Source of the DNA: Carboxylicivirga linearis
Lineage (GTDB): Bacteria; Bacteroidota; Bacteroidia; Bacteroidales; Marinilabiliaceae
Reading direction: 5' to 3'
NCBI RefSeq assembly: GCF_018271995.1
Contig: NZ_JAGUCO010000001.1
Location: 434,001-498,000, forward strand
DNA: 64,000 nucleotides
The notes beneath the pieces are model-generated. The model was not told where the DNA came from. It saw only the letters and a list, made by a program, of their open reading frames with translations, and did no database searches. The translations under genes were made by a program, and so were the position numbers. Below, piece by piece: positions 50,434 through 61,554 of the stretch; position 1 is the stretch's first letter; every line of letters begins with the position of its first letter.

Positions 50434-52902
50434 TTATCCTTTCTGATTAACCGATATTTTTTGGTGAACAAGGTTGGTTAACATCTCGTAAGATGATTGT
50501 TCCGGATATACGGGTTTAAGAAATTCAACACTTACTTTTCTCCAGGGTTTAGGAAACTTTGAACCTTTGGGTAAAGCATCTTTAGCCCCTTTAATTGATA
50601 CCGGAACAATGGGTACGTTTAACTCCTTGCTTAAAATGGCAAACGTCTTTTTAAATTCACCTAAAGTGCCATCAAACGATCTTGTTCCTTCAGGGAAAAT
50701 GATCAGGTTTTTCTTCTTTTTTAACGCTTCACCCATCTTTTGAATAGATTCTTTAAGGTCTTTATTCAAATCCATGATGATCACATGGTGGCGATTGGCA
50801 ATGTATTTCAGAAATTTAGAGTTAACATGCTTCTCTTTGGCATAGAAGTAGGTGTTTCTGATTGTTTGCTTCTTTAAAAATGAGGCTACAAACAAACCAT
50901 CGAAAAAACTCTGGTGATTAGGTGCAATAATACACGGCCCCTCAGGTATATTTTTCATCCCTTTGCCCTTAAAACGGAAATACAAACGGAAGAAATACTT
51001 CGAAAACTTAACAAAAAGAGTGCCTGTAAGCCAGGTTTTTGGAAGTTGAAGATTTACTTTTTCCTTAAGAATGTTTGACCAGTTAATTTTTTCAATTGAA
51101 AGGCGGGTACGCTTTGAAGCAACAAATTCACTAAGTTTTAGTACGGATGGAAATTCAACCAATTCATTAACTTCCATCTCAACACCAAAAGTGGATTGTA
51201 AAAATACCTGCAAACCTACTTTATCAAGGGAGTCCATTCCCAAATCCATTTCCAGATGATGCCCCGGACGAACATCGCAATTCTTTTCATTTGCGATGAA
51301 GTCGCTTATCACCTGGTATTCTTTTAATGATATTTCTTCAGTTACCTCTTCTTTTTGAGCAACCTTGTTTTCATTTGCCAGTTCCTGAAGCATAAAGCGC
51401 TGAAGCTTACCTAATCTTGTGCGAGGTAATTCAGAATGATAGATCGTAAAAGCAGTAATCTTTTTGTATGGAGCAACAGACTGATTGTATTTGTCAATTA
51501 CTTCCCATTTTAAAGTATTATAAATGCCCTCTTCGTCTTGATTGTTTAATTCAGCCTTATTAGGAACTATTATTGCTCTTAACTGATCTTTATCGGCAAA
51601 TACTCCAATATCAGAAACGCAGGCGGCCATGTTTTCAATTTTGGCCTCTATTTCTGAAGGGTTAATATTCTTACCATTAGATAATACTATAATCTCTTTC
51701 TTTCTTCCGGTAATATATAAATAACCATTCTCATCTAAGCGGCCTAAATCACCGGTATGTAACCATCCATCTTTTAAAACCTCAGCGGTTTCATCAGGAC
51801 GGTTAAAATAACCTTGCATTACATTATCACCTTGTACTGTAATTTCTCCATCTTTTATTTCAACATGTGCACAAGGTAAAACTTGGCCCGGGCTACCAAT
51901 TTTTACTTTACCCGGACGAGTAAAGCTAATCATTGGAGCAGTTTCTGTCATGCCATATCCTTCCAATACCTCAAAGCCCAGTGTTTTGTAATCATTTCCC
52001 ACTTCCGGATCTAAAGCAGCTCCACCTGAAACCATAAATTTCACAGCTCCGCCAAATTTAGCATGAACCGATTTAAATACAGTACGGGAGAATTTTTCGG
52101 AATTGAGTTTCTCAGCTAATGAAAACAATGATTTGGCTATCAAACTATTGTCAATTTTGGTACGAATTCCTTTGCGAATTGCGGCATATAAACGTGGTAC
52201 CCCAATAATAATACTAACCTTATTGTCTTTAAGTGTTTGTAAAATATCATCCGATGCCATTGATGGGGACATTGCAATTTTTGCTCCAACAAATAACGGA
52301 ACCATCATTGTTCCCATTAAAGGGAATATATGATGTAGAGGTAGTAGCATCATCACCACTTCCTTATCAGAATATATTTTTACCCCATTGGATACTGCGT
52401 CAATATTAGACAGTAGGTTTTTGAATGAAAGCATAACGCCCTTTGGACTGCCAGTTGTACCTGAAGTATAGATAATAACGGCTGTTTTATTATCCTGCGT
52501 TTGCATCTTGTCTAAAACATAGTCGTCCGGTGCTGATTGCTTATCACATTCTTCAATAACAAATACTTTGGTATGGATTCCTGAATTTTCAATCGCTTTT
52601 TCCAGATCAGCCTTTTTATCTTTTGAGGTAAAGATAATTTCAGGATAACAGTCCTTTATAATATATGCAACCTCGTCAGTGGTTGACATAAAGTCAATAG
52701 GTATCATGGTTGCACCATGGTGCCATCCTGCATAGAAAGCATAAATCCATCCAAGCTGATTCTCAGAAAAAATGGCAATACGCTCTGCGGGTAAATCTTT
52801 TATTTGGTACTTAAAATTGGCAACTTTCTTATTAAGTTGTTTGTAGTTAATGGAACTTTGTCCACACACTATTGCGGTATTCTCTCCTGCATTACAAATC
52901 AT
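50434..52902 (-). CDS. Adenylation-ACP-acyltransferase triple fusion
   Basis: The 822-residue protein joins three lipid-metabolism modules. An AMP-binding acyl ligase (about 1-500) has IYTSGTTGSPKG, a GYGMTETAP-type motif and TGDLGRLDENGY. A carrier domain (about 520-600) has phosphopantetheine serine S558 in GMDSLDKVG. A PlsC-type acyltransferase (about 620-822) has H663-x4-D668 (NHQSFFDG) and FPEGTRSF. This suggests activation of a free fatty acid, loading on the built-in ACP and transfer to a lysophospholipid or similar acceptor, as in Aas but with its own ACP. A short hydrophobic stretch may anchor the last module. Exact substrates are unknown. Confidence 0.9.
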   Translation of the reverse strand: MICNAGENTAIVCGQSSINYKQLNKKVANFKYQIKDLPAERIAIFSENQLGWIYAFYAGWHHGATMIPIDFMSTTDEVAYIIKDCYPEIIFTSKDKKADLEKAIENSGIHTKVFVIEECDKQSAPDDYVLDKMQTQDNKTAVIIYTSGTTGSPKGVMLSFKNLLSNIDAVSNGVKIYSDKEVVMMLLPLHHIFPLMGTMMVPLFVGAKIAMSPSMASDDILQTLKDNKVSIIIGVPRLYAAIRKGIRTKIDNSLIAKSLFSLAEKLNSEKFSRTVFKSVHAKFGGAVKFMVSGGAALDPEVGNDYKTLGFEVLEGYGMTETAPMISFTRPGKVKIGSPGQVLPCAHVEIKDGEITVQGDNVMQGYFNRPDETAEVLKDGWLHTGDLGRLDENGYLYITGRKKEIIVLSNGKNINPSEIEAKIENMAACVSDIGVFADKDQLRAIIVPNKAELNNQDEEGIYNTLKWEVIDKYNQSVAPYKKITAFTIYHSELPRTRLGKLQRFMLQELANENKVAQKEEVTEEISLKEYQVISDFIANEKNCDVRPGHHLEMDLGMDSLDKVGLQVFLQSTFGVEMEVNELVEFPSVLKLSEFVASKRTRLSIEKINWSNILKEKVNLQLPKTWLTGTLFVKFSKYFFRLYFRFKGKGMKNIPEGPCIIAPNHQSFFDGLFVASFLKKQTIRNTYFYAKEKHVNSKFLKYIANRHHVIIMDLNKDLKESIQKMGEALKKKKNLIIFPEGTRSFDGTLGEFKKTFAILSKELNVPIVPVSIKGAKDALPKGSKFPKPWRKVSVEFLKPVYPEQSSYEMLTNLVHQKISVNQKG

Positions 52903-52992: not shown

Positions 52993-54216
52993 CTATAAAT
53001 AATCTGGTTTAACAGAGTGACCGCTCTGAATAAAGGGAGCAACAGCACGCTGGTAAATTCCTTGGACATAAGCAATAGTCATGCCATAGTTAGTAATAGG
53101 AATATGGGCTTCTTTAGCCAGATTAAGCCTATTGTGTAATTGTTTGCGGGTTATCATACAACCACCACATTGAATTACCAATGAATATTCTTCAATTGGC
53201 TTTTCTATTTTATCGAGACCTGCTACTACATCAAATGTTAGATCTTTACCTGTATATGCTGAAATCCATCTTGGAATTTTTACTCTTCCAATATCGTCGC
53301 ATGCAACATGATGAGAGCAGGATTCAAGCAGAAGAATTTTATCACCGTTTTTAAGATCATCAATTTTTGGTGTTCCTTGTAAATAGCTTTCAAAATCACC
53401 TTTAAAATGAGCCAGTAAGATGCTAAAACCGGTTAATGGGATATCTTTAGGGACAGATGCGTCAGCCTTTAAAAATAATTGACTGTCGGTAATAGCCAAT
53501 GCAGGTTTTATTTGTGTTCTTTTTAAAAATGAATCAACTTCTCTTTCTTTTAATACAATGCAAATAGCATCGTTATCAAGTATATCTCTAATAGCTTGTA
53601 CCTGGGGTAGAATAAGTCTTCCTTCCGGAGCTTCGATATCAATTGGAGTAATTAATAACACAATGTCACCATACGAAATTAAATCGCCAATCAATGAGGG
53701 TGTTGTGTAAGCAGATTCAGGAATGGCTTTCTTTATGGTTTTTACCAGTGGTTCGATTGAAGATGTTATGCTTGAAAAAGAGAGTATAGCACTTGCTCCC
53801 AGCTTATCTGCCATAAAGTTCCATTCAGAAGAGGGAGCTTCAATATCAATTTTATTGTGAATAATGATAAATGGGGTGTTCTGTTTTTTAAATGCCTCTA
53901 TTAGGTCTTTTTCTGGTTGATCCCATTGGTTATTGGCTACAACTAAAATAGCAAGATCAATGAGTTGTATTGCCTGAGTGGTTTTTTTTACTCTTTGTGC
54001 TCCCAGTTCTCCAATGTCATCTATACCTGCTGTGTCTATTAGAATCACCGGACCAAAGCCTGTTATCTCAAATGATTTTTTAACCGGATCGGTAGTGGTT
54101 CCTGCAATGTTTGATACAATAGCCACTTCTTGTTCGGCAAGTTTATTAATGATGGAACTTTTACCATTATTGCGTCTTCCAAAAATCCCAATATGTGGTT
54201 TACGATCTCTACTCAT
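52993..54216 (-). CDS. hydF: [FeFe]-hydrogenase maturation GTPase HydF
   Basis: The ATG at 54216 (MSRDRKPHIGIFG) is preferred over an upstream start. The 407-residue protein has an N-terminal GTPase domain with P-loop GRRNNGKS (13-20), G3 DTAGIDD and G4 HNKID, then a dimerisation region. The C-terminal 4Fe-4S part has cysteines in CSHHVAC (about 296) and QCGGCM (about 348). HydF is the scaffold that receives the diiron site made by HydE and HydG and delivers it to [FeFe]-hydrogenase. The position before CGGC is Q where many HydF proteins have H. HydE, HydG and the hydrogenase are not in the window. Confidence 0.93.
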   Translation of the reverse strand: MSRDRKPHIGIFGRRNNGKSSIINKLAEQEVAIVSNIAGTTTDPVKKSFEITGFGPVILIDTAGIDDIGELGAQRVKKTTQAIQLIDLAILVVANNQWDQPEKDLIEAFKKQNTPFIIIHNKIDIEAPSSEWNFMADKLGASAILSFSSITSSIEPLVKTIKKAIPESAYTTPSLIGDLISYGDIVLLITPIDIEAPEGRLILPQVQAIRDILDNDAICIVLKEREVDSFLKRTQIKPALAITDSQLFLKADASVPKDIPLTGFSILLAHFKGDFESYLQGTPKIDDLKNGDKILLLESCSHHVACDDIGRVKIPRWISAYTGKDLTFDVVAGLDKIEKPIEEYSLVIQCGGCMITRKQLHNRLNLAKEAHIPITNYGMTIAYVQGIYQRAVAPFIQSGHSVKPDYL

Positions 54217-54233
54217 GCTGATAAATAATACCA

Positions 54234-54241
54234 CAAAGTTA
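54234..54241 (-). promoter_or_regulatory. Candidate -7 element of hydF
   Basis: The minus strand reads TAACTTTG, which matches TAnnTTTG, 18 nt upstream of the hydF ATG. No -33 box is evident, and the leader would be very short. Confidence 0.4.
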
Positions 54242-54378: not shown

Positions 54379-54732
54379 TTATCCTGTATAAGCAAATAAG
54401 TTTTGCTTGATAAATATTTTATAAGTCAAAGTATCAAGCTGTTTAAATGGTAAAACAGCCATGTTATCAAAGCGTAAGTGGTGCTCAAATTGATTGATAA
54501 TATGATCAACCTCTTGTGCATATCCAGGGTACTGGTTTCTTATTTTCTTACAACTTTGTCTGATAATCTCAATTTTTACTTTGTTTTCTTCTTCTGGTTC
54601 TGCTAGGTATGATAAGCGATTGTTGATTTTTTGTAAAACTTTAATTTTGTTAGAGATGTTGAGTTCAATGTCTGTCCATGCCTTGGTACCGTTCTCGACC
54701 AATTTGTCTAGTACTTCGTTGCGAATCTTCAT
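54379..54732 (-). CDS. Small helical protein of unknown function
   Basis: The 117-residue protein is highly charged and predicted helical (KIRNEVLDKLVENGTKAW, then ISNKIKVLQKINNRLSYL), with no signal peptide or membrane helix. The C-terminus is FKQLDTLTYKIFIKQNLFAYTG. I do not recognise it. It has its own terminator and is separated by 320 bp from the K+ channel gene upstream. Confidence 0.6.
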   Translation of the reverse strand: MKIRNEVLDKLVENGTKAWTDIELNISNKIKVLQKINNRLSYLAEPEEENKVKIEIIRQSCKKIRNQYPGYAQEVDHIINQFEHHLRFDNMAVLPFKQLDTLTYKIFIKQNLFAYTG

Positions 54733-55052: not shown

Positions 55053-56078
55053 TTACAGTCCTTCTTTTACTCCAAATATTTTTTCAAGTTGTTGTTTGCT
55101 TTGGCCAATTGAGATAATAATAAGGTATTGATTCTTATCAATGATTTGATCGTCGGAAGGATTCTTAACTACTTTATTATCGATAACCAAACCGATAAGA
55201 ATTACATTGATATCTTTTTTCATTTGAACAAAAGCATCAAAATATTTCATCCCTAAATATGGGTTTTGTTCATTCACTTTGAACTGTTGAATATCCTGAT
55301 CTTCCATGTCAATGCTGGTTGAAATTAGGTCTTCGGTGTATTCAGCTACGTGTGGTTCAAATAAATAACTGGCAACTAAACGAGAGGCAACTTCGCTTCT
55401 CGAAACAACATGTTTAATTCCAGTATTAATTAATGTTTCCTTTAAATCGGGGTTGCTGCAGTTGACAATGATATTTAAGTTCGGAAATTCTCTTTGTAGA
55501 TTTAAAACAAAAACAAGTGTTTCGGTATCTTCATTAAAATTGATAAACACAGCTTTTGATTTTTCAATATTAGCCTTTTTGTAGGCATCCATGTTATTGT
55601 AATCGGCAAACATAGCAAAACACTGATCATGTTGGTAGAGGTCTTTTATCAATTCCAAATCACTTTTTGAATTGGTAATAAATGCAATGTTGTGTCCGGT
55701 AGGAAAGATTTGATCTGCCACTTTTTTACCAAAGCTATTCCATCCAATAATCATATAATGATCCTCGAAATCTGTTCCGAAAAAACCGTTTTTCTTCTTT
55801 TCCATATATGTATTTATTCTGCTGCTTATTTCACCAATAAAGTAACCTATTACACCAAGGCTACCTAAAATTACAAATAGTCCAACTATTTTTCCAAAAG
55901 GAGTAACCGGATAAAAATCGCCATACCCAACTGTTGTTAAAGTTACTATTGCATACCAAAGAGCATCTGTTAACGATTGAATATTGGCATTAGGATCGGT
56001 ACGTTCCAGTACCGAGATTAGATAAATTAAAAACAGATAGACAATAAAACCTATAACCAATCCTGCCTTTTTCTTCAT
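55053..56078 (-). CDS. Two-helix potassium channel with RCK domain
   Basis: The 341-residue protein has two membrane helices around a pore loop with the selectivity filter TTVGYGD (48-54), then an RCK N-terminal Rossmann domain (from about 106, HYMIIGWNSFGKKVA) and an RCK C-terminal domain (about 255-335). This is the MthK/KtrA-gated channel architecture. It follows the SpeD-like gene by 12 nt and is the last gene of the 61509-55053 cluster. K+ efflux and polyamine levels both alter membrane charge balance, which fits its place here. Confidence 0.92.
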   Translation of the reverse strand: MKKKAGLVIGFIVYLFLIYLISVLERTDPNANIQSLTDALWYAIVTLTTVGYGDFYPVTPFGKIVGLFVILGSLGVIGYFIGEISSRINTYMEKKKNGFFGTDFEDHYMIIGWNSFGKKVADQIFPTGHNIAFITNSKSDLELIKDLYQHDQCFAMFADYNNMDAYKKANIEKSKAVFINFNEDTETLVFVLNLQREFPNLNIIVNCSNPDLKETLINTGIKHVVSRSEVASRLVASYLFEPHVAEYTEDLISTSIDMEDQDIQQFKVNEQNPYLGMKYFDAFVQMKKDINVILIGLVIDNKVVKNPSDDQIIDKNQYLIIISIGQSKQQLEKIFGVKEGL

Positions 56079-56090
56079 ATAGTTGATATT

Positions 56091-56459
56091 CTAATTGGTT
56101 TTAACTTCTGTTGTACAATTTAATTCTTCCATTTCGTTTTCCCACTTAAACGAAAAACTGCTTTGGTTGCATAAAGTTATAAAATTCACTGTCTTTTCTT
56201 TATTGCAACTGCTCAGTTCAATGTACGACCATCCACTATTAGTAAATGTGTGAATGGCCAGGTGTGATTCCGCTAATAACCAAAAAGCAGTAAAGCCATT
56301 TAATGGGAATTCATGGTCGGTGTAGTTTAATATTTTAAAACCACTCTTCTTTAAGGCAGAATTAAAAGCCGATATTAAATCTGAAGGTTGAGTTAAATGA
56401 ATCCAACCTTTTATATTAAAAATTCTGGGTGGCAGATCAACTGCTTTAATTTGTGTCAT
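56091..56459 (-). CDS. speD: S-adenosylmethionine decarboxylase (SpeD) homologue
   Basis: The 122-residue protein matches the class 1b proenzyme. The self-cleaving serine is S65 in AESHLAIHT, the proton-donating histidine is H70 and the catalytic cysteine is C85 (SSCN). The spacings S+5 and S+20 equal those of Thermotoga SpeD S63/H68/C83. It would self-cleave to form a pyruvoyl cofactor and decarboxylate AdoMet for spermidine synthesis. Some SpeD homologues have been reported to decarboxylate ornithine or arginine instead, so the substrate needs testing. It sits 12 nt from both the SpeE gene and the K+ channel gene. Confidence 0.82.
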   Translation of the reverse strand: MTQIKAVDLPPRIFNIKGWIHLTQPSDLISAFNSALKKSGFKILNYTDHEFPLNGFTAFWLLAESHLAIHTFTNSGWSYIELSSCNKEKTVNFITLCNQSSFSFKWENEMEELNCTTEVKTN

Positions 56460-56471
56460 TTTGCGTTTGCT

Positions 56472-58025
56472 TTAATATAAGTCCCAGTTTCCTTTTAAGT
56501 AGTATTTGTATAGCACAGGATCGTGAATTCGATTAACTTTAACAGGATCGGTCTGTCCCGGAAAAATATCTTTTCCAAAGGAGGTTATCAATTGCATCGA
56601 TTCATGATTAAGCCATTGAGTTTCTATATTCTTAAATTCTAAAGCCTGAGCTTCTTTCTTTAAATCCAGATCCCGCTCGGTTTTAATTCCCATCGACCAA
56701 CCCCATTCTCCTAATGTAATAACCTGGTTGTGTAACGGTAAGGTTTTAAAACCTGCCTCTGTCATTGTTTTTACAATGCACTTAAAAGCTTTTGTTGCAA
56801 AGTATGGACTTCCGGCCTGAGTTATAATTAATCCTCCTGGACGAAGGTGCTTATAACATACATTATAAAACTCAACAGAATACAATCTACCTAATTCAAC
56901 AGTTCGTGGATCAGGAAGGTCAATGATAATGATGTCGTAAAAATCTTTGTTTCTTGTTAGATAATGATATCCGTCGGAATTGATTACTTCAACTTTGGGA
57001 TTGGTTAACGCCCCTTTATTCATTTTGGTTAGTATGGGATGTTCCTGACCCAGGCGTGTCATGGCAGGATCCAAATCAACCAAACGAATATTTTCAACAG
57101 ATGAATATTTCAATACTTCACGAGCTGCACAACCATCGCCTCCCCCTAAAATTAGTATTCTTTGAGGGTTAGGGTGTAGGGTCATAACAGGATGAACCAA
57201 TGGTTCGTGGTACATCACTTCATCCATGGTGCAAAGCTGTTGATTGCTATTTAAGTATAACCAGTATTCATTCTCCCATTGGGTGATAACAATTTTTTGA
57301 TATTGACTTTGCTCTGAATAGATGACCTTGTCTTTGTATTTTATTTGTTCACCGTATTTGATGATAGGATCAGAAGTGACTACTCCCGAAATGATTACTA
57401 TGGTTACTACCCATATGGATATGTTGATGTACTTTTTGTATCGATCATCAACCAGTTTTTTTAGCGTTATAAAAACACCAATGGCTACTCCAAAATTAAC
57501 AGTCCCTAAGAAAAAAGGCAGGTACGTTAAACCTAAAAATGGTAAGCCCAAAACCACAAAGAAGATGCCTCCAATTAAGCTTCCATAGTAGTCTTTTTCC
57601 AAAACATTGGAAATATTTACCCTCAGCGATTCATATTCATCATTAATACGCATAACCAATGGAATTTCCATACCTATCAAGGTTCCAATTAGTATGGAAA
57701 AACCATAAATGACAACCGCTAATGAACTGGTAAAAGCTGAAACGGTATACACTATCATGGGGGCGAAAGAAACTACCAGTGATAATGCAAATTCTAGGAT
57801 AAGAAACTTTTCGGTTAGGTTTCTTTTAAACGATTTACTAATACGACTACCTAGGCCCATGGAAAACATCATGGTAGAGACAATCATTGTCCATTGCAGG
57901 ATTGAATCGCCCAGAAAATAGGTTGCTAAGGTTGATAGTAGATATTCAGCTATAATACCGCTGAATCCTGTAGCAAAAATAGCGGCCAAAAGTATGGCAG
58001 AGTATTTATTACGGATTTTGAACAT
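56472..58025 (-). CDS. speE: Membrane-embedded spermidine synthase
   Basis: The ATG at 58025 (MFKIRNKYS) is preferred over a GTG 15 nt upstream. The 517-residue product has about seven membrane helices (residues 10-215), then a soluble aminopropyltransferase domain with GGGDGCAAREVLKY (about 288), VDLDPAM, and IIIDLPDPRTVELGRLYS. The GGGDG and DLPDP elements bind decarboxylated AdoMet and the diamine. Its usual donor supplier, SpeD, is encoded next. The membrane domain suggests synthesis at, or transport across, the inner membrane. A terminator-like hairpin lies just upstream (58044-58079). Confidence 0.88.
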   Translation of the reverse strand: MFKIRNKYSAILLAAIFATGFSGIIAEYLLSTLATYFLGDSILQWTMIVSTMMFSMGLGSRISKSFKRNLTEKFLILEFALSLVVSFAPMIVYTVSAFTSSLAVVIYGFSILIGTLIGMEIPLVMRINDEYESLRVNISNVLEKDYYGSLIGGIFFVVLGLPFLGLTYLPFFLGTVNFGVAIGVFITLKKLVDDRYKKYINISIWVVTIVIISGVVTSDPIIKYGEQIKYKDKVIYSEQSQYQKIVITQWENEYWLYLNSNQQLCTMDEVMYHEPLVHPVMTLHPNPQRILILGGGDGCAAREVLKYSSVENIRLVDLDPAMTRLGQEHPILTKMNKGALTNPKVEVINSDGYHYLTRNKDFYDIIIIDLPDPRTVELGRLYSVEFYNVCYKHLRPGGLIITQAGSPYFATKAFKCIVKTMTEAGFKTLPLHNQVITLGEWGWSMGIKTERDLDLKKEAQALEFKNIETQWLNHESMQLITSFGKDIFPGQTDPVKVNRIHDPVLYKYYLKGNWDLY

Positions 58026-58043
58026 ATAATAGAGAAACACAAA

Positions 58044-58079
58044 AACACGAAGATATAGTCAGCCTATTTTCTTCGTGTT
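58044..58079 (-). terminator. Terminator-like hairpin between the DUF350 and speE genes
   Basis: A 10-bp perfect stem (58044-58053 with 58070-58079) has a 16-nt loop and is followed by a T-rich tract on the minus strand. It could split the cluster into a PspA part and a polyamine/K+ part, or set their ratio. Confidence 0.6.
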
Positions 58080-58099
58080 CTTATATCAGAAATGTTATT

Positions 58100-58969
58100 T
58101 TATAAACACCAGGTTATCAATATAGAGCCGCCAATATATGCAAAGGCTTCAATAATGGCAGCTCCCACATTAGGATGTTCCTGGTTAATAATTTCATCTG
58201 TCAGGCGCTGTCCAGGTAAAAGAATCTTATCGGTTAAGAAACGCATTACCGGAAGTAAAATAATACCTAAAGCAAGTTCAAAACCGGCTTCTGAAAAGGT
58301 ATATCCCCATCCTTCAAAATCGCCCATTAAAGCATGGCGAATTAAATTGGCAATGGCAATTAACGCTCCTGCAAAACCAACCCCCACAGCAACATTGTCT
58401 TTTTCAATATGCTCGTGTACATCGTAAGGGGTGATGAACTGATAGACAGCTGCAGTGATAAAAAGTGCTATCTGACCAGCCAACCAAAACACCACAGCTG
58501 ATGTTATGCCCTGAATCAAAGTTCCACTCTCTCCGGTAACAGCACCGAAAATAATCAGACCCGAAGCTACTGAGATAGCACCTTCAATCACTCCGGTTCC
58601 TGAATTACGATCCTCAATAATCTCCTTTTTAACTGAAAACTTGCGCAGGATGATTTTATCATTGAGCCATATAGAGATGTTAAGCAATATGATGGCTAAT
58701 ATTCCATAAATAGCAATGTCCTGGATGTCGAGTAGTAAGCCTCTCGACGGTCCAACTATTGCACTGCCAATGGCAGCTAATAAACCGATGAAATATCCAA
58801 CATGGGCAAATGAGAATGCCAGATTATCCTTTTCAACAAGTTCTTCTTTTATATTAAAATCTTTGTGAACCAATTGGTAGACCAGTTTCCCAATGAAGAA
58901 TACGGCAAAACCAACTGCTATATAAATTACTGCATCGTATAAGATGATTGATATTTCTGAAAATGTCAT
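58100..58969 (-). CDS. Double DUF350 inner-membrane protein (YjfL-like)
   Basis: The 289-residue protein contains two tandem DUF350 units, each with about four membrane helices. The internal repeat is seen in NLAFSFAHVGYFIGLLAAIGSAI and NVAVGVGFAGALIAIANLIRHAL. E. coli YjfL has a single DUF350 unit and is encoded with the PspA paralogue YjfJ. The gene follows the Ser-rich protein gene by 22 nt. Its function is unknown; a membrane partner of PspA is plausible. Confidence 0.88.
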   Translation of the reverse strand: MTFSEISIILYDAVIYIAVGFAVFFIGKLVYQLVHKDFNIKEELVEKDNLAFSFAHVGYFIGLLAAIGSAIVGPSRGLLLDIQDIAIYGILAIILLNISIWLNDKIILRKFSVKKEIIEDRNSGTGVIEGAISVASGLIIFGAVTGESGTLIQGITSAVVFWLAGQIALFITAAVYQFITPYDVHEHIEKDNVAVGVGFAGALIAIANLIRHALMGDFEGWGYTFSEAGFELALGIILLPVMRFLTDKILLPGQRLTDEIINQEHPNVGAAIIEAFAYIGGSILITWCL

Positions 58970-58991
58970 GTCTTAATAGGTTGAGTTAGTA

Positions 58992-59807
58992 TTATTTGCC
59001 AAATCCTCCACTTCTGCTTCTTGATGAAGAACTGCTGTAACGACTTGAACTACGACTGGTTTTATTTGAGTAGCTTGAACCAGATGAGTAGCTTCTTGAG
59101 CTTTTAGCTGAAGCTGATCGTTGCACCTGGCTTCTCACATTTTGTTTAAAAGATGAGGGTTTGTTGCCCCAGGTACTGTTTTTGCCTGTACCTGACGAAG
59201 TATAGGTGTTGGTTCCGTATACAGTTCTTCCTGAAGGTCCGTAGTATGGACGGGATCCATAGTAGCCACCCCGATAGTAATCGTCGTAATAGGAGCGACG
59301 AGCAGGATAAGTCATCATATTAAACATTGACGACATAAATGCATACTGACCGTAGAAAGCCCAGAAAGAGTTGCCGTTACGTTGTTCCCAATGACCATAT
59401 TTAGGATTGCCAACATAATGATTATAGCCGGCCGGACTAGCTTGTTTGCTTAATTTGCCATCTTTTTTTGATACAATTTCCATACCCATATTGTCCACAT
59501 TGGCAGAAAAGAACACATCAGGTACTTCTTCCCAATCAGTGGTGCTTGACAATACTGTGTCAGGATGTTCAATAATCACATTGTACATGTGATAGTATTT
59601 GTTACTCCTCGAATCCATATCCAAAAGGATAATGGAATAATTCTGTTCGTTGTTTAGTTTGGTAATTAATTTATCAACCGGTGTTTTTTGCCATGTACTA
59701 CTTACGGTATCAACTCTTCTGGATCGGTTGGTGCAGTTATTGCAGGATCGTAAAACGATAAATCCCAGTATTACTGCTATTATAACTTTTGCAATTCCGT
59801 TGTTCAT
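58992..59807 (-). CDS. Anchored protein with Ser/Arg-rich tail (YjfM/DUF1190-like?)
   Basis: The 271-residue protein has an N-terminal membrane helix (AKVIIAVILGFIVLRSC), a compact domain to about residue 145, a Tyr/Gly-rich stretch (RRSYYDDYYRGGYYGSRPYYG) and a tail of Ser and Arg ending SGGFGK. The tail resembles the RGGFG-type tails of DUF1190 proteins such as YjfM/YgiB, which also occur in PspA-paralogue operons. Homology is not certain. It lies between the DUF4178 and DUF350 genes. Confidence 0.65.
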   Translation of the reverse strand: MNNGIAKVIIAVILGFIVLRSCNNCTNRSRRVDTVSSTWQKTPVDKLITKLNNEQNYSIILLDMDSRSNKYYHMYNVIIEHPDTVLSSTTDWEEVPDVFFSANVDNMGMEIVSKKDGKLSKQASPAGYNHYVGNPKYGHWEQRNGNSFWAFYGQYAFMSSMFNMMTYPARRSYYDDYYRGGYYGSRPYYGPSGRTVYGTNTYTSSGTGKNSTWGNKPSSFKQNVRSQVQRSASAKSSRSYSSGSSYSNKTSRSSSRYSSSSSRSRSGGFGK

Positions 59808-59824
59808 AATTAAGATGTTTGGGG

Positions 59825-60370
59825 TTAGTCTTCTCCCGGTAAAATATTTGAGATTTCAAATGGTTTAACACTTTTCCCGATGGAAGCTTCAAATTCTTTC
59901 TCATCCCACTGTTCTATGCATAGCAGGTGTTCTCCTGTTTCATCTTCGAAGTCCCAGGAGCGAAATTCTTCCCACTCAGTACCTTTAGTGATATTATGGA
60001 AATACCCGGGAGCTTCCTTTTCGAGGTGATAAGTAATGCCTTTGTAGGTAATTTTCTTAGGGGGTTGCTGACGTGAGATTAGAGTATCAGTAAGGTCATC
60101 CTGTAACTTTCTTACTTTTACTTTCTCCATGAATGATATTTCCAATTCGTCATCTTCTTCAATCCCCAGAAAACGGGTTTCAGAACCATTATTAATCTGA
60201 AATTCGCGAGTGAAATAATTATTGCCCCAGTCGTATTCCATAATGGCATCCACTACCCAGGTAGATAGGTCGTATTCGAAAACAAAGCCAACATCCAGAT
60301 CGTTAACCTGAATGTTGGTGCTATCGTAATGTGGTTCTTGTTTCTTTTTGAATCGATCAAATAATCCCAT
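59825..60370 (-). CDS. DUF4178 protein (YjfK-like)
   Basis: The 181-residue protein has the DUF4178 core: a compact beta-rich fold around DVGFVFEYDLSTWVVDAIMEYDWGNNYFTREFQI and the RSWDFEDETGEHLLCIEQWDEKEFEASIG end. In other genomes DUF4178 proteins go with PspA and DUF350. It probably plays the part of YjfK. It starts 20 nt after the PspA gene. Confidence 0.85.
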   Translation of the reverse strand: MGLFDRFKKKQEPHYDSTNIQVNDLDVGFVFEYDLSTWVVDAIMEYDWGNNYFTREFQINNGSETRFLGIEEDDELEISFMEKVKVRKLQDDLTDTLISRQQPPKKITYKGITYHLEKEAPGYFHNITKGTEWEEFRSWDFEDETGEHLLCIEQWDEKEFEASIGKSVKPFEISNILPGED

Positions 60371-60390
60371 AAGTTAAAGTAGAGGGTATG

Positions 60391-61098
60391 TTATTCACTC
60401 TTGTTTTTTAGTTTGGCTTTCAATTCTTCCAGCGAATTAGATGCCTTAACATTCTTTTCTGAAAGAACATCATCTATTTCGTCATCCAAACTTCTGTTTT
60501 CCAAACTTATTTCGCCATATGCTTCCGAAAGAGCTTCTTGCTGAGCTACTTTTTCTTTCATCTTCTCAAGCATCGAAACCGTACCCGAACTGTCAATACC
60601 ACTTAATTGTTTATTGATTTTTTGGGTGGCACTACTTACTCTTGCACGAGCTTTTAAAGTCCTCAGCTCATTTTCATAGCTGGATATGGTACTTTTCAGC
60701 TTTTTTACGTTTTTATCAAGTGTGGCAATGTTATTATCAAAGCGTGTTACTTCTTCCTGAGCTCTTTTTGCAGCTTCCAAAGCCTCTTCTTTTTTCGAAA
60801 GCGATTCGGTTGCCAACCGGTCGGCTTCAGCAACTTCTAATTCTCCTTTTTCAGCTTTTTGAATTAGAAGGATGGCTTTTTGCTCATAATTCTTAGCCAT
60901 TGATTTACTGTCGTTCAAATCTTTTTTGCTTCTGATCGACATGGCTTTTACTTCAGCCAAAGCCTGAAGGCTCTTATCAAGATCTTTCTTTAGGTCGCGT
61001 ATGCCCTGCTCGGTCATTTTTATTGGATCTTCCAATTTATCAACCATAGCATGAGCTTCAGCCTTACCTACATTAAATATTCTATTGAAAATTCCCAT
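60391..61098 (-). CDS. pspA: PspA/IM30 family membrane-stress protein
   Basis: The 235-residue protein is almost wholly coiled coil and opens with the amphipathic PspA start (MGIFNRIFNVGKAEAHAMVDKLEDPIKMTEQGIRDLKKDL). PspA/IM30 proteins form ESCRT-III-like polymers on damaged inner membranes. It corresponds by position to YjfJ of E. coli. No PspF, PspB or PspC is nearby. Confidence 0.94.
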   Translation of the reverse strand: MGIFNRIFNVGKAEAHAMVDKLEDPIKMTEQGIRDLKKDLDKSLQALAEVKAMSIRSKKDLNDSKSMAKNYEQKAILLIQKAEKGELEVAEADRLATESLSKKEEALEAAKRAQEEVTRFDNNIATLDKNVKKLKSTISSYENELRTLKARARVSSATQKINKQLSGIDSSGTVSMLEKMKEKVAQQEALSEAYGEISLENRSLDDEIDDVLSEKNVKASNSLEELKAKLKNKSE

Positions 61099-61113
61099 TT
61101 CTGAATTTGTTTT

Positions 61114-61509
61114 TTAAGCTTTTGAAAATTCGATTAACTCATCTGAATACTCAGACAATAAAAGTTTTAGTGAATTTAAACTTCCTTCTAACTCGTTTAA
61201 GTCAAGATTTTCGAGTTGAAGGGTGTCGCGAAAGATCACTTTCTTTCCTTCATCATCCAGTACAAAGGCACCATGCACTATCTGACGGTTCATTACCAGT
61301 AGTGATTTGTAAATATCTTCTGAACCTTTAGAGAGCTCAAAAAGTAAACCTTCGATAATTAGGATTGAGTCTTCACAATCGACAATAACATTTGAAATGC
61401 CGTCTTCTTCTTTTTCAACAACAAATAATTCTTCTGTTGCATCTTCCGACACAATGCGGTATTCAAGGTCAAGGAGGTAGTCTCTAACCTTGTTAAAATG
61501 TTCACTCAT
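61114..61509 (-). CDS. YbjN/YjfI-like small protein heading the PspA operon
   Basis: The 131-residue acidic protein has an alpha/beta pattern (FNKVRDYLLDLEYRIVSED, LLVMNRQIVHGAFVLDDEGKKVIFRDTLQLENLD) that resembles YbjN and DUF2170 (YjfI) proteins, which share a secretion-chaperone-like fold. YjfI heads the E. coli yjf operon just as this gene heads the cluster here. It lies 15 nt before pspA and is probably a partner or regulator of PspA. Confidence 0.75.
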   Translation of the reverse strand: MSEHFNKVRDYLLDLEYRIVSEDATEELFVVEKEEDGISNVIVDCEDSILIIEGLLFELSKGSEDIYKSLLVMNRQIVHGAFVLDDEGKKVIFRDTLQLENLDLNELEGSLNSLKLLLSEYSDELIEFSKA

Positions 61510-61546
61510 GTTTAATGCGTTTATATAAATTGGTTATGGGACATAT

Positions 61547-61554
61547 CAAATATA
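61547..61554 (-). promoter_or_regulatory. Candidate promoter of the PspA-polyamine operon
   Basis: The minus strand reads TATATTTG, an exact TAnnTTTG match, giving a leader of about 30 nt before the ATG at 61509. No -33 TTTG is visible, so an accessory factor may be needed. Confidence 0.45.

What the first reader, a model, noticed from the sequence alone, without database searches (positions are those of the whole stretch)
55053..61554. PspA-centred membrane-stress operon with built-in spermidine synthesis and a K+ channel
Eight genes on one strand are spaced 10-25 nt apart except one 74-nt gap: YjfI-like, PspA, DUF4178, Ser-rich anchored protein, double DUF350, membrane-embedded SpeE, SpeD homologue, RCK-gated K+ channel. 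The order parallels E. coli yjfIJKLM-yjfC, but the spermidine-conjugating YjfC is replaced by enzymes that make spermidine, and a K+ channel is added. It suggests one unit that repairs the inner membrane while adjusting its counter-cations. Links between PspA, DUF350, DUF4178 and polyamine genes have been noted in comparative work; this exact composition may be poorly described.
Basis: partly seen in the sequence, partly recalled or inferred. Interest (0 to 1): 0.75.

Follow-up and report, generated by a model that had tools for sequence, protein, structure and literature searches.

The report
PspA membrane-stress module with odd aminopropyltransferase
Some bacteria carry a co-inherited set of eight genes that joins a membrane-repair protein to an unusual membrane-bound polyamine-type enzyme, and the evidence suggests that this enzyme modifies something other than the cell's ordinary spermidine pool.

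Summary
The eight genes are present as described (55053-61509, minus strand). Their order is conserved: in a 60-genome family sample, 12 genomes have TM-SpeE over cut-off and all 12 keep all eight genes in order. DUF4178 was found in the same 12. So this is one inherited module.

(1) 'One operon': the 74-nt DUF350-SpeE gap holds a strong T-tailed hairpin, and 8 of 12 family loci have one beyond random expectation. Read-through remains possible. (2) 'Makes spermidine': all 12 carriers have carboxynorspermidine decarboxylase, another spermidine route. TM-SpeE keeps the donor site but lacks the PTYP[ST]G loop (27 of 27). SpeD keeps Ser/His/Cys but its Pro71 is lost in 14 of 15 family SpeDs.

Most of the composition is in print: Ravi et al. 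2024 (passages) describe CesT/Tir-PspA, 7TM-SpeE, DUF350, a lipoprotein and DUF4178, and in another group a K+ channel. I recall, unread, that Li et al. 2019 found such SpeE fusions make no spermidine. Apparently new: the combination with SpeD and the channel, its co-inheritance, and the internal hairpin.

The parts
61114..61509 (-). CesT/Tir-like small protein (131 aa), first gene, in the position of E. coli YjfI / P. aeruginosa BacA
   Evidence: PF22550 180 bits; TAnnTTTG motif at -45, and at -38 to -45 in 9 of 15 family loci
60391..61098 (-). PspA/IM30 family protein (235 aa)
   Evidence: PF04012 148 bits; far below the PspA equivalog cut-off, 56.1 vs 242.95
59825..60370 (-). DUF4178 protein (181 aa)
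   Evidence: PF13785 92.9 bits; found in the same 12 of 60 family genomes as TM-SpeE; moderate-confidence mostly-beta model, pLDDT 68.7
58992..59807 (-). Ser-rich protein with one N-terminal hydrophobic segment (271 aa), possible lipoprotein
   Evidence: No Pfam family over cut-off; one hydrophobic segment 4-22, 30 Ser in last 100 residues
58100..58969 (-). Double DUF350 integral membrane protein (289 aa)
   Evidence: PF03994 190 bits, two stretches
58035..58088 (-). Hairpin with T-rich 3' side between DUF350 and SpeE, intrinsic-terminator-like (approximate limits)
   Evidence: -24.3 kcal/mol, z -5.5, 0 of 200 shuffles; limits; T-tailed hairpins beyond random sequences in the same gap of 8 of 12 family loci. 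The generic terminator scan did not list it
56472..58025 (-). TM-SpeE: hydrophobic multi-helix N-terminal half fused to an aminopropyltransferase domain (517 aa from ATG; 522 aa from the GTG at 58040)
   Evidence: NF002956 574.8 bits over cut-off 472; PF01564 at residues 275-456; donor site kept, PTYP[ST]G loop absent
56091..56459 (-). SpeD/AdoMetDC homologue (122 aa), the only PF02675 match found in this genome
   Evidence: PF02675 50.9 bits, TIGR03330 44.1 below cut-off 75.65; own-genome search; Ser65/His70/Cys85 align to T. maritima S63/H68/C83
55053..56078 (-). Two-helix K+ channel with TVGYGD filter and RCK (TrkA_N) domain (341 aa)
   Evidence: PF07885 and PF02254; two hydrophobic segments; last gene in 12 of 12 family modules (for 11, window for one)

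Best explanation
This is a PspA-type envelope-stress module inherited as a unit (shown by phyletic pattern). Its SpeD and TM-SpeE form a decarboxy-AdoMet-dependent aminopropylation branch tied to DUF350 and DUF4178. I infer that SpeD still makes decarboxy-AdoMet, and that TM-SpeE transfers the aminopropyl group to an acceptor other than free putrescine that it meets at the inner membrane, most simply an amine carried by a lipid or membrane protein. That would add positive charge to the membrane surface while PspA, with its CesT/Tir-like partner, stabilises the bilayer. The K+ channel would let K+ move to offset charge or restore membrane potential. Expression would start at the CesT promoter. 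An internal terminator-like hairpin before SpeE would lower the enzyme and channel dose, or separate them into a second unit. Shown: gene content, order, co-inheritance, hairpin, another spermidine route, residue changes. Inferred: all activities, the acceptor, the link to PspA and the channel's role.
For: TM-SpeE (over cut-off) and DUF4178 were found in the same 12 of 60 family genomes, on one contig, 1.8-2.3 kb between the matched stretches, with all eight genes in order. In 197 class genomes, 17 of 19 with TM-SpeE over cut-off also have a SpeD match against 12 of 178 others, and 14 of 15 with a DUF4178 match have TM-SpeE (Fisher p 6e-15 and 2e-16), so TM-SpeE goes with a decarboxy-AdoMet source. 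G[GA]G[DE]G and D-x-P-D are kept in 27 of 27 aligned TM-SpeEs, while the PTYP[ST]G loop present in 5 of 5 canonical fused enzymes is G-x-W-G in 27 of 27. nspC is over cut-off in all 12 carriers, with a carboxynorspermidine synthase homologue about 2 kb away in this genome. Ravi et al. also suggest 'aminopropylation of other substrates' (passages).
Against: No activity is shown for any gene. The SpeD has lost the conserved Trp-Pro of AdoMetDC, so decarboxy-AdoMet supply is uncertain; Li et al. 2023 say a conserved Pro separates bona fide AdoMetDC from arginine decarboxylase (section 7 read). Two of 19 TM-SpeE genomes have no SpeD match (G041, G074). TM-SpeE keeps both acidic residues of the DxxD motif, so a diamine acceptor is not excluded. 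In the class, nspC is over cut-off in only 5 of 19 TM-SpeE genomes (G041 is just under), so elsewhere TM-SpeE could still be a spermidine synthase. The agmatine-to-putrescine steps were not searched here. No clear promoter was found before SpeE: sigma-70-like matches lie there (58161-58133, 58120-58092) but the scan total is at chance, and TAnnTTTG occurs there in 1 of 15 loci.
Confidence: 0.5

Rival explanations
1. One reading: SpeE and SpeD make ordinary spermidine, as a local supply that neutralises membrane charge during PspA-directed repair.
For: Donor motif and DxxD acids intact in TM-SpeE, and TM-SpeE scores over the NCBIfam cut-off for 'polyamine aminopropyltransferase'; SpeD keeps Ser/His/Cys; most class genomes with TM-SpeE (14 of 19) lack nspC over cut-off.
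Against: nspC over cut-off in all 12 family carriers and in 51 of 60 family genomes with or without the module; loop changed in 27 of 27; TIGR00417 speE cut-off not reached, 152.4 vs 249.55. Recalled, not read: Li et al. 2019 found no spermidine from such fusions.
Confidence: 0.2
2. The SpeD homologue has changed substrate (arginine or ornithine decarboxylase), so that the branch makes agmatine or putrescine near the membrane, and TM-SpeE uses another donor or is mainly a transporter or sensor.
For: Pro at the HTWPE motif is lost in 14 of 15 family SpeDs and Trp is Phe in 15 of 15; at the other central Pro (F-S-P-Y-G) the window has F-P-L-N-G; Li et al. 2023 link lack of a conserved Pro to arginine decarboxylases (section 7; the figure naming the Pro was not seen).
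Against: TM-SpeE keeps the Asp of GGGDG that binds the aminopropyl end (role recalled); module SpeDs in other lineages keep WPE (L060, L062) or FPE (L057); a SpeA-like PLP decarboxylase, under its model's cut-off, exists elsewhere.
Confidence: 0.18
3. TM-SpeE extends an existing polyamine (spermidine to spermine type, or aminopropyl-agmatine), made or moved at the membrane.
For: Aminopropyltransferases vary in acceptor; 17 of 18 bacterial spermidine synthases used agmatine (PMC11107197, abstract and passages). Spermidine is probably already available here from the nspC route.
Against: No polyamine profile for a carrier is at hand; does not explain the membrane domain or the tie to PspA and DUF4178.
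Confidence: 0.1
4. Two unrelated neighbouring operons that happen to lie together.
For: Terminator-like hairpin and longer gap between them.
Against: Co-presence in the same 12 of 60 family genomes, and a SpeD/DUF4178/DUF350/TM-SpeE set recurs without PspA in other families in another order.
Confidence: 0.02

Closest known systems
CesT/Tir-PspA operon with 7TM-spermidine-synthase-like protein (second major group in Ravi et al. 2024, PMC11237479; passages read)
   Same: CesT/Tir-PspA dyad, 7TM-fused SpeE, DUF350, a lipoprotein, DUF4178
   Different: That passage does not list SpeD or a K+ channel for this group; here both follow SpeE in all 12 family modules
CesT/Tir-PspA operon with glutathionylspermidine-synthetase-like ATP-grasp (third group, same paper; E. 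coli yjf gene order recalled)
   Same: CesT/Tir-type and PspA genes, DUF350, potassium channel, polyamine link
   Different: Passage lists an ATP-grasp ligase, DUF1190 and DUF2491, none found among the eight genes by Pfam; DUF4178, SpeE and SpeD here instead
AdoMetDC + membrane SpdSyn-like fusion + DUF350 clusters (Li et al. 2019, doi 10.1042/BCJ20190561; not held; content recalled)
   Same: SpeD, membrane SpeE fusion and DUF350 in one cluster; proposed polyamine-independent role (its title is seen in reference lists)
   Different: As I recall them these clusters do not centre on PspA; the PspA-less loci here resemble them
Pseudomonas aeruginosa bacABCDEF (PMC10948618; abstract and passages)
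   Same: CesT-like first gene (BacA, crystal structure reported) and PspA-like second gene; RT-PCR reported as one operon
   Different: No spermidine synthase in or around it according to the authors

Membership tests
PspA/IM30 family | PspA_IM30 domain over the family's length | tested here: met
   PF04012 148 bits, residues 2-229, cut-off 33.9
Classical E. coli Psp system | PspA equivalog with PspF/PspB/PspC | tested here: not met
   TIGR02977 56.1 vs cut-off 242.95; none of the eight genes is PspB, PspC or PspF by Pfam; the rest of the genome was not searched for them
Ravi 2024 group 2 (CesT/Tir-PspA with 7TM-SpeE) | CesT/Tir-PspA dyad, membrane-fused SpeE, DUF350, DUF4178 | tested here: met
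   number of TM helices in SpeE not settled (six long helices in a weak model)
Ravi 2024 group 2 (CesT/Tir-PspA with 7TM-SpeE) | Lipoprotein (Ctha_1186 domain) | tested here: inconclusive
   Gene 4 has one N-terminal hydrophobic segment and no Pfam family over cut-off; lipobox not tested with a predictor
E. coli yjfI-type operon | DUF2170 first gene and ATP-grasp YjfC | tested here: not met
   First gene hits CesT_Tir_1 and YbjN, not DUF2170; no ATP-grasp among the eight
Spermidine synthase (SpeE) | dcAdoMet donor motif and DxxD acids | tested here: met
   GGGDG and DLPDP aligned to 2e5w and 1uir
Spermidine synthase (SpeE) | PTYP[ST]G loop (role of its Tyr recalled) | tested here: not met
   GEWG in its place; 0 of 27 aligned TM-SpeEs have the loop, 5 of 5 SpeD-SpeE fusions do; 2e5w has only the Tyr
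Spermidine synthase (SpeE) | Makes spermidine from putrescine | not testable with these tools
   Needs an assay
AdoMet decarboxylase (SpeD class 1b) | Ser63, His68, Cys83 for self-processing and catalysis | tested here: met
   Ser65, His70, Cys85; invariant in 7 of 7
AdoMet decarboxylase (SpeD class 1b) | Pro conserved in bona fide AdoMetDC (Li et al. 2023) | tested here: not met
   Thr in the window, Pro in 1 of 15 family SpeDs; figure not seen, so which of two central Pro is meant is inferred; the window lacks Pro at both aligned positions
RCK-gated K+ channel | TVGYGD filter, two TM helices, RCK domain | tested here: met
   Sequence; PF07885, PF02254

The most novel reading that the evidence does not exclude
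The TM-SpeE/SpeD pair puts aminopropyl groups on a membrane lipid or membrane protein, a new kind of bacterial surface-charge modification controlled by a PspA membrane-stress system and balanced by its own K+ channel.
Probability: 0.22. Interest if true: 0.85.

Novelty: new variant of a known kind. Interest (0 to 1): 0.45.

Why it matters
Polyamine-type genes recur beside PspA in several bacterial groups (PMC11237479, passages) without a known product. This family gives a clean test: nspC is present in all 12 carriers, so whatever the module's aminopropyltransferase makes should be visible as a separate product, and its deletion should not disturb spermidine. If the acceptor is a lipid or membrane protein, it would be a new way for bacteria to change membrane charge under stress.

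Tried and rejected
Chance clustering: rejected by the 12-of-12 order and the co-presence.

TM-SpeE using AdoMet instead of decarboxy-AdoMet (as in putrescine N-methyltransferase, recalled): disfavoured because the GGGDG Asp is kept.

SpeE/SpeD as this genome's only spermidine route: disfavoured by nspC (518 bits) and a carboxynorspermidine synthase homologue (422 bits, under that model's cut-off of 800) on one contig.

Separate promoter before SpeE: none convincing. TAnnTTTG (Bacteroidota -7 motif, recalled) is at -38 to -45 of CesT in 9 of 15 loci but within 120 nt of SpeE in 1 of 15; the two-part motif occurs before CesT in 3 of 15 (random mean 0.26), not in the window. The sigma-70-type scan lists two matches just before SpeE but its total is at chance, 27 found against 27.3.

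Limits of the counts: 34 of 60 family and 106 of 197 class genomes have some NF002956 match; only those over its cut-off were counted. One search missed DUF4178 in G076 and G103, where a direct scan of the TM-SpeE neighbourhood found it (L043, L046), so its counts are lower bounds and absences are not certain. The one class genome with DUF4178 and no TM-SpeE over cut-off, G046, has a partial match (75 bits). Of 60 family genomes, 48 are at least 90% complete with at most 5% contamination.

Hairpin misses: of 12 family loci, L070 and L073 have no T-tailed hairpin by pattern, L077 is at chance level and L076 has no gap to scan; L074's looks like a repeat. The controls are first-order random sequences, not exact shuffles.

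Structure: the TM-SpeE model was weak (pLDDT 65.9, pTM 0.53); the 50 listed Foldseek matches are all aminopropyltransferases of about 270-315 residues, so the active site could not be placed against the membrane. DUF4178 model moderate, no significant PDB match (best E 0.045). PADLOC gave a partial mad2 match to the SpeE domain (64 bits, residues 288-433), not followed.
Full report
WHAT IS THERE. The window holds eight minus-strand genes from 61509 down to 55053: CesT/Tir-like, PspA, DUF4178, Ser-rich anchored protein, double DUF350, TM-SpeE, SpeD and a K+ channel with RCK domain. Gaps are 12-22 nt except 74 nt before SpeE (59 if a GTG start is used). The first gene is CesT_Tir_1 rather than DUF2170/YjfI.

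CONSERVATION. A scan of genome contigs with TM-SpeE gave eight loci, six of them titled Marinilabiliaceae or Carboxylicivirga. Six of the eight hold all eight genes, L038 is cut by its contig end after the sixth, and L041 (Microscillaceae) has only SpeE. In 60 genomes of the window's family, 12 have TM-SpeE over the model cut-off and 12 have a DUF4178 match: the same 12, each on one contig with 1.8-2.3 kb between the matched stretches; the other 48 showed neither. All 12 modules (11 fetched plus the window) keep all eight genes in order. Three of the 11 lie on contigs of the same length as L035, L037 and L039. Within the window's genus 4 of 9 sampled genomes carry it, so it seems to be gained or lost as a block. 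In 197 genomes of the class, TM-SpeE is over cut-off in 19, SpeD is matched in 29 and DUF4178 in 15; 17 of 19 TM-SpeE genomes have a SpeD (12 of 178 others do), and 14 of 15 DUF4178 genomes have TM-SpeE. DUF4178 counts are lower bounds: one search missed it in G076 and G103, where a direct scan found it beside TM-SpeE. SpeD lies within 6 kb of TM-SpeE in 12 of 19, and DUF4178 in 11 of 19 by the same counts (one TM-SpeE place per genome; G064, whose pieces lie on several contigs, counts as a miss).

TWO LAYOUTS. Outside the family, the PspA layout recurs in whole or part in L057, L060 and L062; L058 has DUF4178, DUF350 and SpeE without PspA. A second layout has no PspA: SpeD, a larger DUF4178 protein, a single DUF350, TM-SpeE, then a flavin amine oxidase and a 352-aa unknown (L043); ORF orders in L046-L051 look similar, with families checked by Pfam only in L043 and L046. 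So SpeD, DUF4178, DUF350 and TM-SpeE are a core that can exist without PspA. A channel gene also occurs next to SpeD in L062, but of a six-helix Ion_trans type without an RCK match.

ONE OPERON OR TWO. The 74-nt gap folds to -24.3 kcal/mol (z -5.5, 0 of 200 shuffles) with a T-rich 3' side. Across 12 family loci the DUF350-SpeE gap is at least 61 nt in 11 by projected starts; T-tailed hairpins that at most 4 of 200 random sequences match occur in 8 of 12, with several unrelated stem sequences. By the same pattern, of the 44 upstream gaps of the 11 fetched loci 30 were long enough to scan and one had a hit (L070, PspA-DUF4178); hits further downstream (L072, L073, L074) were matched by 13 to 44 of 200 random sequences. 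Against: the generic terminator scan found no excess and did not list this site (its loop limit is 8), and four of the 12 loci lack a convincing hairpin. A TAnnTTTG motif sits at -38 to -45 of CesT in 9 of 15 loci but before SpeE in only 1 of 15; sigma-70-like matches just before SpeE are within chance. I therefore favour one main promoter with a partial terminator that lowers SpeE, SpeD and channel, with two separate units as the alternative.

IS IT SPERMIDINE SYNTHESIS. The genome's only SpeD match and its only Spermine_synth match over cut-off are these two genes; a second Spermine_synth match is just under (21.5 vs 22.9). But nspC (carboxynorspermidine decarboxylase) scores 518 bits, cut-off 409, with a carboxynorspermidine synthase homologue about 2 kb away on the same contig (422 bits, cut-off 800) and a SpeA-like decarboxylase elsewhere (under its cut-off). 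The steps from agmatine to putrescine were not searched. All 12 carriers have nspC over cut-off, as do 51 of 60 family genomes overall. In the wider class only 5 of 19 TM-SpeE genomes do, with G041 just under, so the redundancy argument is strong for this family and not general.

ACTIVE SITES. I aligned 27 TM-SpeE frames of over 480 aa with 5 canonical SpeD-SpeE fusions and segments of two solved enzymes; the 11 family loci, the fragment in L062 and L044 (missed by ORF picking) are not in it. The donor motif G[GA]G[DE]G and D-x-P-D are kept in all 27. The PTYP[ST]G loop of 5 of 5 fusions is G-x-W-G in all 27. (The Tyr of that loop binds putrescine in human spermidine synthase, Tyr241: recalled.) The SpeD keeps the self-processing Ser, His and Cys, but Trp70 is Phe in 15 of 15 family SpeDs and Pro71 is kept in 1 of 15. 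Li et al. 2023 (PMC10407285; abstract, passages and section 7) report a Pro conserved in bona fide AdoMetDC and not in arginine decarboxylases; its figure was not available. In the PspA-less layout, Cys83 is Ser in 6 of 7 complete SpeDs (the interrupted L048 left out).

LITERATURE. Ravi et al. 2024 (PMC11237479; passages) describe the CesT/Tir-PspA dyad with 7TM-SpeE, DUF350, a lipoprotein and DUF4178; a further group with a potassium channel; and suggest that polyamine level or aminopropylation of other substrates is monitored. In the held library it is the only paper with PspA, DUF350 and DUF4178 and the only one with PspA, spermidine synthase and potassium channel; two more papers hold DUF350 and spermidine synthase (listing only), and one search listed 20 of 557. 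Li et al. 2019 (Biochem J) is not held; from recall, AdoMetDCs near membrane SpdSyn-like fusions are active while the fusions fail to replace spermidine synthase, with DUF350 in the cluster. The P. aeruginosa bac operon (PMC10948618; abstract and passages) is an experimental relative of the CesT-PspA pair. PMC11107197 (abstract and passages) shows that aminopropyltransferases vary in acceptor. PMC7857480 (passages) gave nothing used.

CONCLUSION. A real, co-inherited PspA module; mostly a known kind, with SpeD and a K+ channel added. The enzyme pair most likely aminopropylates something other than free putrescine; the acceptor is unknown.

Noticed in passing
window 50434-52902 (-): Fused AMP-binding, acyl-carrier and acyltransferase protein, resembling acyl-ACP synthetase/phospholipid acyltransferase (recalled); a same-length ORF (822 aa) lies downstream of the module in L042.
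   Followed up: partly
window 52993-54234 (-): HydF-type [FeFe]-hydrogenase maturase GTPase (PF18133, PF18128) next to the module.
   Followed up: no
window 54379-54732 (-): 117-aa protein without a Pfam family over cut-off, found downstream of the module in L042 and L071 and further off in L039/L075 (contigs of the same length).
   Followed up: no
L043, L044 (as L030), L046, L047, L049, L050: SpeD homologues of the PspA-less layout have Ser in place of the catalytic Cys83 (6 of 7 complete ones).
   Followed up: partly
L035 DUF350-SpeE gap: Near-perfect long palindrome (-41.4 kcal/mol in 60 nt) without a T-run, possibly a dispersed repeat.
   Followed up: no
L062:8006-8848: A six-helix-type Ion_trans channel next to SpeD in another lineage, in place of the RCK-type channel.
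   Followed up: no
G033, G138, G186 (L012, L014, L019): SpeD matches in 414-476-aa frames that also match SpeE, that is SpeD-SpeE fusions, in genomes that also carry TM-SpeE.
   Followed up: partly
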